NCBI GenBank assembly: GCA_913062745.1
Contig: CAJXXJ010000147.1
Location: 1 to 8,017, forward strand
Direction of reading: 5' to 3'
From: an uncultured Phaeodactylibacter sp.
GTDB taxonomy: Bacteria; Bacteroidota; Bacteroidia; Chitinophagales; Saprospiraceae
Length of the DNA stretch: 8,017 nt
Shown: piece after piece, positions 3,449-5,454 of the stretch
How the letters are laid out: each line of letters starts with the position of its first letter
Position numbering within the stretch: the stretch's first letter is position 1
The notes under the pieces: generated by a model
Seen by the model: the letters and a program-made list of their open reading frames with translations, nothing else
Database searches by the model: none
Told to the model about the DNA's origin: nothing
Position numbers and translations under genes: made by a program

Positions 3449-3484
3449 AAAAAAAAAGAGGCAGCGCTACCACAGCACTACCTC
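3449..3484 (-). terminator. Strong rho-independent terminator, minus strand
   Basis: Read on the minus strand, GAGGTAGTGCT (3484-3474), a five-base loop (3473-3469) and AGCGCTGCCTC (3468-3458) form an 11 bp stem without mismatches, counting two G·U pairs. Nine T residues follow immediately (3457-3449). On the plus strand the two wobble positions become C·A mismatches and no T-run follows, so the signal is strand-specific. No protein gene of the minus strand lies upstream of it, so it most likely ends a small RNA. Confidence 0.85.
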
Positions 3485-3553
3485 AGCCCTAACCAAATAA
3501 AACCAAATTATTCTTTATAAAGGTCGGCTCGTAAGCCGTTTATCTTCAATGCT
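3449..3553 (-). ncRNA. Putative small non-coding RNA, about 100 nt, convergent with kmo
   Basis: Inferred from a promoter and terminator that frame it, not from a known RNA family. The proximal promoter (TTG at 3588-3586, N20, TATATTTG at 3565-3558) would start transcription near 3550-3554, and the strong terminator ends it at about 3449. Predicted architecture from 5' to 3': a hairpin made of AUAAA/UUUAU (3543-3539 with 3521-3517) and CGGCU/AGCCG (3538-3534 with 3529-3525) closed by a UACG loop, with a three-base bulge on the 3' side; then an unpaired A/U-rich linker with two exact copies of AUUUGGUU (3508-3501 and 3498-3491) two bases apart; then the terminator hairpin. No ATG occurs in the transcript. 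A TTG at 3549 opens a 13-codon frame ending at 3508, which may be chance. I do not recognise it as 6S, tmRNA, SRP RNA, RNase P or a riboswitch. Transcription from the distal promoter would give a form of about 180 nt. Confidence 0.6.
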
Positions 3554-3557
3554 TATA

Positions 3558-3588
3558 CAAATATAAGGGGTTTGTGTAAAAAATACAA
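3558..3588 (-). promoter_or_regulatory. Proximal Bacteroidota-type promoter (P1) of the putative small RNA
   Basis: Minus-strand TTG at 3588-3586, a 20 nt spacer, then TATATTTG at 3565-3558. Both elements and their spacing fit the -33/-7 arrangement of Bacteroidota promoters. The -33 box lies inside one arm of the inverted repeat at 3586-3623, so its accessibility may be controlled. Expected start of transcription is near 3550-3554. Confidence 0.65.
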
Positions 3589-4068: not shown

Positions 4069-5454
4069 ATGTCCGCACGACTGCTTTTGATCTTCGCCTT
4101 GTTTCCCCTGCTTCTTCCCGCGCAGGAGACCACGGAGCAAGATGCTTTTTACATCCGCAAGATTTACGACAATACCCTCACGAATGCGCAGTGCTACGAC
4201 TGGCTTCAGTACCTTACGCAACGCATAGGCGGGCGTCTGGCTGGTTCTCCGCAGGCCGCTGCCGCAGTGGAGTATACCCGGCAGCTGATGGAGCAGCTGG
4301 AGCTGGATACCGTCTGGCTGCAGCCTGTAATGGTGCCGCACTGGGAGCGGGGCGAGCCGGAACAGGTGCGCATCGTCAACAGCATGAAGATGGGCACGCT
4401 ACCGCTTCGTGCGCTGGCGCTGGGCAATTCGGTCGGCACAGGCCCGCTCGGCATCACCGCTGAGGTGGTAGAAGTGAAGAGCCTGGATGAGGTGGATAGC
4501 CTGGGCAGCAGCCTCCAGGGTAAAATTGTGTTTTTCAATCAGCCGATGGACCCTACCGAGCTCAATACTTTTGCCGCGTATGGCAAAGCGGCCGGGCAGC
4601 GCGTGTACGGCGCTTCCCGCGCCAGCAAGCATGGGGCTGTTGGAGTCCTGGTCCGCTCGCTCACCACCCGCCTGGATGATATCCCGCATACCGGCGTGAC
4701 GGTGTATCAGGAAGGAGCTGACCCGATCCCGGCTTTGTCGATCAGCACCAACGATTCAGAATTGCTCAGCCGGCTGCTGAAAGAGGAGCCGGTGCAGGTC
4801 TTTATGCGCAATACCAGCCATATGCTTGAGGATAAGCTATCCTACAACGTCATCGGCGAAATCCGTGGCAGCACCCATCCGGAAGAAATAATCCTGGTCG
4901 GCGGGCATCTCGATTCCTGGGATGTAGGCACGGGTGCGCACGACGACGGGGCAGGCTGCGTGCACGCATTGGAAGTGGTGCACCAAATTAAAAACCTGGG
5001 CTACGAGCCTAAACGGACCATCCGCTGTGTGATGTTTATGAACGAAGAGAATGGATTGCGCGGCGGCCGGGCCTACTGGGAATGGTCCGACGAGCAGAAA
5101 GAATACCATATGGCGGCTATCGAGTCAGACCGGGGCGGCTTTACGCCGAGGGGCTTCACTGCTGACGGGCACGAAGATATTTTTAACGATAAATTCAAGC
5201 AGGTCATCGAATGGCTGCCGCTGCTGGAGCCTTACGGACTGGCTTTCCGCAAAGGCGGCTCCGGAGCAGACATATCCGGACTGAAAGGGCAGAAGGGGCT
5301 GCTTTTCGGCTTCGAGCCGGACTCACAGCGCTACTTTGACTATCACCATACGCCCATCGACGGCCCGGATGTCGTCAACAAGCGGGAGCTGGAGCTGGGC
5401 GCTGCTGCAATGGCCAGCCTGGTGTATTTACTGGACCAATACGGAATTGACTAA
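4069..5454 (+). CDS. Secreted M28-family zinc metallopeptidase with PA domain (carboxypeptidase Q-like)
   Basis: A 461-residue exopeptidase-type enzyme expected in the periplasm or outside the cell. Residues 1-18 form a Sec signal peptide: short basic start MSAR, hydrophobic LLLIFALFPLLL, then PAQ with probable cleavage after it. A PA domain lies at roughly 120-255, inserted before the catalytic core. The core has the M28 zinc ligands in order: H280 (GGHLDSWD), D292 (AHDDGAG, bridging), E326-E327 (NEENGL; general base then zinc ligand), D354 (ESDRGG) and H427 in YHHTPID. The GGHLDSWDVGTGAHDDG pattern is typical of carboxypeptidase Q/PGCP-like members, which release N-terminal or dipeptide residues. 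The exact substrate cannot be read from sequence. The ATG at 4069 is preferred over an in-frame TTG at 4015 because it gives a clean signal peptide and follows the promoter. Its TAA overlaps the next ATG by one base. Confidence 0.92.
   Translation: MSARLLLIFALFPLLLPAQETTEQDAFYIRKIYDNTLTNAQCYDWLQYLTQRIGGRLAGSPQAAAAVEYTRQLMEQLELDTVWLQPVMVPHWERGEPEQVRIVNSMKMGTLPLRALALGNSVGTGPLGITAEVVEVKSLDEVDSLGSSLQGKIVFFNQPMDPTELNTFAAYGKAAGQRVYGASRASKHGAVGVLVRSLTTRLDDIPHTGVTVYQEGADPIPALSISTNDSELLSRLLKEEPVQVFMRNTSHMLEDKLSYNVIGEIRGSTHPEEIILVGGHLDSWDVGTGAHDDGAGCVHALEVVHQIKNLGYEPKRTIRCVMFMNEENGLRGGRAYWEWSDEQKEYHMAAIESDRGGFTPRGFTADGHEDIFNDKFKQVIEWLPLLEPYGLAFRKGGSGADISGLKGQKGLLFGFEPDSQRYFDYHHTPIDGPDVVNKRELELGAAAMASLVYLLDQYGID

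What the first reader, a model, noticed from the sequence alone, without database searches (positions are those of the whole stretch)
3449..3588. Putative undescribed small RNA gene on the minus strand, convergent with kmo
Seen directly: an 11 bp terminator stem that is perfect only on the minus strand (two C·A mismatches on plus become G·U on minus), followed by T9, and about 75 nt upstream of its stem a TTG-N20-TATATTTG promoter on the same strand. The transcript of about 100 nt has a UACG-loop hairpin and a single-stranded linker with two copies of AUUUGGUU, and it has no ATG. Known: TAnnTTTG with a TTG near -33 is the Bacteroidota promoter type. Inference: this is a stand-alone small RNA of a family I cannot name. 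The repeated linker would be a natural target-pairing or protein-binding site.
Basis: partly seen in the sequence, partly recalled or inferred. Interest (0 to 1): 0.78.

Follow-up and report, generated by a model that had tools for sequence, protein, structure and literature searches.

The report
Small RNA predicted to curb catabolism
Many Saprospiraceae bacteria carry a short conserved gene, predicted to make a roughly 100-base RNA, whose nearly unchanging middle stretch is complementary to the start regions of mRNAs for enzymes that break down amino acids and acyl-CoA compounds, so it likely pairs with them and would turn that catabolism down.

Summary
On the minus strand a TTG-N20-TATATTTG promoter, a 5' hairpin, a linker with two AUUUGGUU copies and an intrinsic terminator form a small gene (about 3552-3449). 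No Rfam family matches. It is conserved in the window's family (82 of 150 genomes by pattern, 80 of them with one copy), usually beside a divergent M28 peptidase gene (101 of 136 loci). The linker is nearly invariant while the terminator arms covary. The linker is antisense to translation-start regions. In four orthologue sets (amino-acid dehydrogenase, 2-oxoacid dehydrogenase E1 and E2, isobutyryl-CoA mutase-type IcmF) RNA-bearing genomes show start-proximal pairing (means -18.2 to -21.5 kcal/mol; shuffled seeds about -11.7, 0 of 300 as low); genomes without the RNA sit at background. Mean pairing separates bearing from lacking genomes in 29 of 29, but on only 2-3 independent changes in the tree. 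The neighbouring peptidase mRNA shows no clear excess. phaC, a thiolase and an aldolase/dehydrogenase mRNA carry the same seed, in sense, in their 3' UTRs. Best reading: a new trans-acting base-pairing RNA family that likely represses amino-acid, 2-oxoacid and acyl-CoA catabolism (branched-chain specificity is inference). Expression and direction of regulation are untested.

The parts
3449..3552 (-). predicted small RNA of about 104 nt (5' end placed 6 nt after the -7 element; inferred)
3558..3588 (-). promoter TTG-N20-TATATTTG
   Evidence: pattern in 77 of 132 loci, shuffles 2.66
3572..3588 (-). imperfect palindrome TTGTATTTTTTACACAA overlapping the promoter, possible operator
   Evidence: TTGTA-N3-8-TACAH in 52 of 132 loci, shuffles 1.0; factor unknown
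3525..3538 (-). 5' hairpin with UACG loop, sequence not conserved
3485..3509 (-). linker/seed AAUUUGGUUUUAUUUGGUUAGGGCU, antisense to target start regions
3449..3484 (-). intrinsic terminator, stem 3484-3458 and T9
4069..5454 (+). divergent neighbour, M28 peptidase gene, syntenic; used as control, not a predicted target
   Evidence: PF04389; 101 of 136 loci

Best explanation
It is likely a stand-alone, trans-acting base-pairing small RNA whose near-invariant 25-nt linker is complementary to the translation-start regions of mRNAs for amino-acid, 2-oxoacid and acyl-CoA catabolic enzymes, and which would repress them by covering the ribosome-binding region. Shown by sequence: the conserved gene anatomy, the complementarity, its position (median paired segment from -32 to -5 relative to the start codon) and its co-occurrence with the RNA gene across genomes. 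Inferred: that the RNA is made, that it pairs in the cell, and that the outcome is repression. Predicted targets tested across genomes: a Glu/Leu/Phe/Val-family amino-acid dehydrogenase, a fused 2-oxoacid dehydrogenase E1, a lipoyl E2, and the fused mutase/GTPase IcmF. Predicted in Phaeodactylibacter only: an enoyl-CoA hydratase, an acyl-CoA dehydrogenase, an acyl-CoA synthetase, malic enzyme and a further E1. That the theme is branched-chain amino-acid catabolism is my inference, because the substrates of the dehydrogenases are not settled by the family models. Transcription is probably set by a factor that reads the palindrome over the promoter.
For: Conservation and covariation; synteny. 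With discovery genomes left out, mean seed-leader energy in RNA-bearing genomes is -21.5 (amino-acid dehydrogenase, n 14), -18.2 (E1, 21), -19.6 (E2, 21), -19.1 (IcmF, 20) against -11.6 to -11.9 for shuffled seeds, 0 of 300 each; RNA-lacking genomes give -10.0 (5), -10.8 (6), -10.4 (8), -10.7 (8), equal to shuffled seeds; rank tests p 8.6e-5 to 4.8e-4, not corrected for relatedness. The excess is confined to the start region. 29 of 29 genomes on the tree are separated at -14 and -15 kcal/mol, 28 of 29 at -16. The amino-acid dehydrogenase was found in a scan of one congener and then confirmed elsewhere, the window's own genome included (-20.8). 8 of the 10 best-scoring of 843 start regions there are catabolic enzymes.
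Against: No RNA evidence at all. Only 2-3 independent presence/absence changes in the tree, too few for a significant sign test. Not every bearing genome fits each target (E2 in G035 -9.8, in G023 -12.5; E1 in G031 -11.8, in G019 -11.6). Of 11 antisense sites ending within 25 nt of an ATG in the pattern survey, 2 lie in genomes without an RNA hit (G116, G126). The genome-wide excess of long complementary runs is modest (19 of 841 start regions with 9 or more pairs, 7.9 for shuffled seeds). The linker is predicted only about half unpaired. G022 was first labelled lacking and relabelled after a diverged copy was seen; G009, counted as lacking, has a weak model hit with AUUUGGUUGG (E 0.002).
Confidence: 0.75

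Rival explanations
1. The linker is mainly a binding site for an RNA-binding protein; the RNA is a sponge for a protein that also binds 3' UTRs bearing the same sense motif.
For: Two-fold repeat in the linker; the same motif in sense in 3' UTRs of phaC, a thiolase and an aldolase/dehydrogenase. RbpB of Bacteroides is a global binder that prefers single-stranded regions (PMC11697453, section 7 read).
Against: Does not predict antisense matches at start codons that track the RNA gene. A protein could still assist the pairing.
Confidence: 0.1
2. AACCAAAU-rich leaders are a general feature of start regions in this clade, and the match to the linker is coincidence of composition and ancestry.
For: Few independent contrasts; modest genome-wide excess; PEP carboxykinase leaders also run below shuffled seeds (-16.1 against -11.4, n 6).
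Against: M28 leaders next to the RNA show no clear excess (-10.7 against -9.9 +- 0.5, 6 of 100 shuffled seeds as low, n 101). Composition-matched shuffled seeds do not reproduce the signal. Different targets use different halves of the seed. A near-invariant linker between drifting arms needs a reason.
Confidence: 0.1
3. Same pairing, but the RNA activates or stabilises its targets.
For: Direction cannot be read from sequence; the Neisseria sibling sRNAs act both ways (PMC9973317, abstract).
Against: Pairing usually ends a few bases before the start codon (median -5), which commonly blocks initiation (general knowledge).
Confidence: 0.1

Closest known systems
NgncR_162/163 sibling sRNAs of Neisseria (PMC9973317, abstract and outline seen)
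   Same: small RNAs that act on central-metabolism and amino-acid mRNAs; interactions predicted within the 5' UTR and coding region (section heading)
   Different: two sibling copies in a distant phylum; by the abstract they control citric and methylcitric acid cycle genes and amino-acid uptake, not the genes predicted here; no homology claimed
GibS and FopS sRNAs of Bacteroides thetaiotaomicron (PMC11697453, passages and section 7 seen)
   Same: single-stranded conserved seed before a terminator, shared by several loci including one 3' UTR-derived copy; acts on translation-initiation regions
   Different: FopS seed lies at the 5' end and targets are polysaccharide-utilisation mRNAs; 14 paralogues; no Rfam family matched the window
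BTnc201/MasB of B. theta (Rfam RF04177; PMC10994844, passages seen)
   Same: about 100 nt; 5' hairpin, U/G-rich linker and terminator hairpin in the Rfam alignment; inhibits a target by binding its 5' region
   Different: 24.2 bits against a gathering score of 105; linker sequence differs; the paper calls MasB narrowly conserved

Membership tests
trans-acting base-pairing sRNA (a kind, not a homology family) | own promoter and intrinsic terminator, no reading frame starting at ATG | tested here: met
   (sequence patterns only)
trans-acting base-pairing sRNA (a kind, not a homology family) | conserved seed complementary to target mRNAs, sites co-occurring with the RNA | tested here: met
   few independent contrasts
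trans-acting base-pairing sRNA (a kind, not a homology family) | transcript made and targets regulated | not testable with these tools
   no expression data at hand
BTnc201/MasB (RF04177) | match at gathering score | tested here: not met
   24.2 against 105 bits
any of the 4227 families of Rfam 15 | match at gathering score | tested here: not met
   0 matches in the window and in 12 homologue or paralogue loci
FopS/GibS | R1 seed sequence | not tested
   seed letters not compared; the paper says FopS was deposited in Rfam, and no Rfam family matched

The most novel reading that the evidence does not exclude
A family-wide RNA circuit: the stand-alone RNA and 3' UTR copies of the same seed in storage-polymer (phaC, thiolase) and sugar (aldolase/dehydrogenase) mRNAs act together, so that making storage or sugar-using mRNAs silences branched-chain amino-acid and acyl-CoA burning in trans.
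Probability: 0.27. Interest if true: 0.82.

Novelty: new member of a known kind. Interest (0 to 1): 0.68.

Why it matters
Searches of the held library for 'Saprospiraceae' with 'sRNA' and for 'isobutyryl-CoA mutase' with 'sRNA' returned no paper, so this looks like the first small RNA of that family with a predicted, testable regulon. If true, one seed would tie amino-acid, 2-oxoacid and acyl-CoA catabolism to storage-polymer genes. It also offers a clean natural case in which a seed is nearly frozen while the stems around it drift.

Tried and rejected
Protein-coding or leader-peptide reading: no ATG in the transcript, and the downstream gene is convergent. Leader or attenuator of a downstream gene: downstream neighbours differ between loci while the divergent M28 gene is kept. 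Regulation of the M28 neighbour by the seed: no clear excess. PEP carboxykinase as a conserved target: partial only (2 of 6 further bearing genomes with 8 or more exact pairs; mean energy still below shuffled seeds; one lacking genome to compare). Family beyond the window's own: model R1 reached E <= 0.01 in 28 of 295 class genomes, but outside the family the best was 1.3e-5 and many of those printed lack the linker, so no claim is made. Regulator of the palindrome: no informative second site in the 1.2 Mb of G001 examined. Substrates of the dehydrogenases: not settled. The amino-acid dehydrogenase matches PF00208 but only 83 bits of a 620-bit glutamate dehydrogenase cut-off, with glutamate dehydrogenases as nearest solved chains. 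E1 and E2 fall below the curated cut-offs; nearest solved chains of one E1 include 2-oxoisovalerate and pyruvate dehydrogenases, those of E2 are pyruvate and 2-oxoglutarate complexes with one 2-oxoisovalerate chain. Literature searches gave only analogues or unrelated papers.

Full report
WHAT IS THERE. On the minus strand the window holds TTG-N20-TATATTTG (3588-3558), a predicted start near 3552, a UACG-loop hairpin (3538-3525), the linker AAUUUGGUUUUAUUUGGUUAGGGCU (3509-3485) and a terminator (stem 3484-3458, T9 to 3449). No Rfam family reaches its gathering score in the window or in 12 homologue and paralogue loci. The best sub-threshold hit is BTnc201/MasB, 24.2 bits against 105.

CONSERVATION. 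BLAST with 251 bases against 59 genomes gave core hits (E at most 3.2e-7) in 25 of the 36 genomes of the window's family and nothing below 1e-3 in the 23 of other families. In those 25 loci, not chosen by pattern, AUUUGGUUAGGG is intact in 25 of 25. A pattern search hit 82 of 150 family genomes, 80 of them once and 2 twice, with the reversed-pattern control 0 in all rows. Linker invariance in loci is partly imposed by the pattern. Terminator pairs covary: 98.5% of cells paired, 9 of 10 pairs with changes on both sides, 0 of 500 shuffles. This is expected of any maintained terminator, and it shows that the arms drift while the linker does not. The promoter pattern is in 77 of 132 loci (shuffles 2.66) and a palindrome overlapping it in 52 of 132 (shuffles 1.0) (132 of the 136 distinct loci had enough upstream sequence). 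In 101 of 136 loci the upstream neighbour is the M28 peptidase, divergent in all 101.

TARGETS. The linker pattern with a variable spacer was run on 100 family genomes and gave 102 places. By my count 52 of these are RNA genes already listed and 4 were already held as loci; the other 46 were fetched, together with one place, and read. They comprised extra stand-alone copies, sense copies in 3' UTRs, hits inside coding regions, intergenic hits, and 11 antisense sites ending within 25 nt of an ATG. Of those 11, 9 lie in RNA-bearing genomes and 2 (G116, G126) in genomes without an RNA hit. Their genes include a fused 2-oxoacid dehydrogenase E1 in two genera, another E1, a lipoyl E2, the IcmF-type fused mutase/GTPase, a PaaY-like protein and PEP carboxykinase (NCBIfam; E1, E2, PaaY and the truncated IcmF query fall below the curated cut-offs).

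I tested orthologues of four genes in 30 genomes each (29, 30, 29 and 20 genomes matched). With the discovery genomes left out, mean duplex energies of the 25-nt seed with -60..+12 in RNA-bearing genomes were -21.5 (amino-acid dehydrogenase, 14), -18.2 (E1, 21), -19.6 (E2, 21) and -19.1 (IcmF, 20), against -11.6 to -11.9 for shuffled seeds (0 of 300 each). Genomes without the RNA gave -10.0 (5), -10.8 (6), -10.4 (8) and -10.7 (8), equal to shuffled seeds. Runs of 8 or more exact pairs: 11 of 14, 14 of 21, 16 of 21, 12 of 20 against 0 of 5, 1 of 6, 1 of 8, 1 of 8. Over 76 leaders the energy falls to -18.4 at the start codon and is -12.2 to -15.2 in the other windows from -300 to +300; in 27 leaders of lacking genomes it is flat. 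Averaged over targets, -15 kcal/mol separates bearing from lacking genomes in 29 of 29 on the tree (discovery genes included); G031, with E1 only at -11.8, is outside that tree. The lacking genomes are not one clade (3 changes, 2 forced by well-supported branches), too few contrasts for a significant sign test. G022 was first labelled lacking, then found to carry a diverged copy, and is counted as bearing. PEP carboxykinase is only partial: 2 of 6 further bearing genomes have 8 or more exact pairs, mean -16.1 against -11.4.

SCAN OF A CONGENER. In 1.2 Mb of G001, on contigs chosen because they held known hits, 843 start regions were scored. The ten best were the amino-acid dehydrogenase, an enoyl-CoA hydratase, IcmF, lipoyl E2, a glycosyltransferase, a universal stress protein, malic enzyme, an acyl-CoA synthetase, an acyl-CoA dehydrogenase and a further E1 (Pfam). 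Ranks 11-20 were mixed and held no acyl-CoA enzyme. Of 30 controls drawn at random below rank 200, 20 were scanned and none was an acyl-CoA or 2-oxoacid dehydrogenase enzyme (8 had no Pfam family). The amino-acid dehydrogenase came from this scan and was then confirmed elsewhere, in the window's own genome too (-20.8). The overall excess of runs of 9 or more is modest (19 of 841 against 7.9). The M28 leaders show no clear excess (-10.7 against -9.9 +- 0.5; 6 of 100 shuffled seeds as low; n 101).

SENSE COPIES. The linker or a near variant also lies, in sense, between stop codon and terminator of PHA synthase genes (TIGR01836 tested on the window's own genome's copy, L210; the same C-terminal end was read in L225, L226, L232-L234 and by eye in L242), of a thiolase in one genome (L241), and of a bifunctional aldolase/short-chain dehydrogenase in three (L222-L224; family tested on L222). 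Whether these release seed-bearing RNAs is untested.

READING. The simplest account is a trans-acting base-pairing RNA that covers the start regions of amino-acid, 2-oxoacid and acyl-CoA catabolic mRNAs and so would repress them. Transcription, pairing in the cell and direction are inferred. Branched-chain specificity is a further inference: IcmF points to it, but the dehydrogenase substrates are not settled. It works like the Neisseria sibling sRNAs or GibS/FopS of Bacteroides but belongs to no Rfam family.

PAPERS. PMC10994844: passages; PMC11697453: passages and section 7; PMC9973317: abstract and outline; all others: search listings only. 'Not in print' rests and covers only that library.

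Noticed in passing
L210, L225, L226, L232-L234, L242 (phaC); L241 (thiolase); L222-L224 (aldolase/dehydrogenase): Sense copies of the seed between stop codon and terminator of protein genes, possibly 3' UTR-derived sibling RNAs.
   Followed up: partly
window 3588-3572 and homologous promoters: Palindrome TTGTA..TACAA overlapping the promoter in 52 of 132 loci; the regulator is unknown.
   Followed up: partly
L195 and L211 (genome G429, another family of the class): Two near-identical short loci with a TAnnTTTG-type promoter, AAUUUAGGUUUAUAAUUGGUUAG and a terminator; looks like a separate paralogous sRNA pair.
   Followed up: no
window 3663-3633 (minus strand): TTGACA-N17-TATATTTG promoter and an AAUUAGU..ACUAAUU inverted repeat upstream of the small RNA; two such promoters occur in 4 of 131 loci.
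   Followed up: partly
L452:5215-6060, L470:5333-6211, L438 (G001): Start regions of universal-stress-protein-like genes score high for seed pairing; only L452 was checked against Pfam. Possible further targets.
   Followed up: no
L384, L385, L386: Diverged copies of the RNA in genomes missed by the pattern (G110, G099, G022), so the 82 of 150 is a lower bound.
   Followed up: partly
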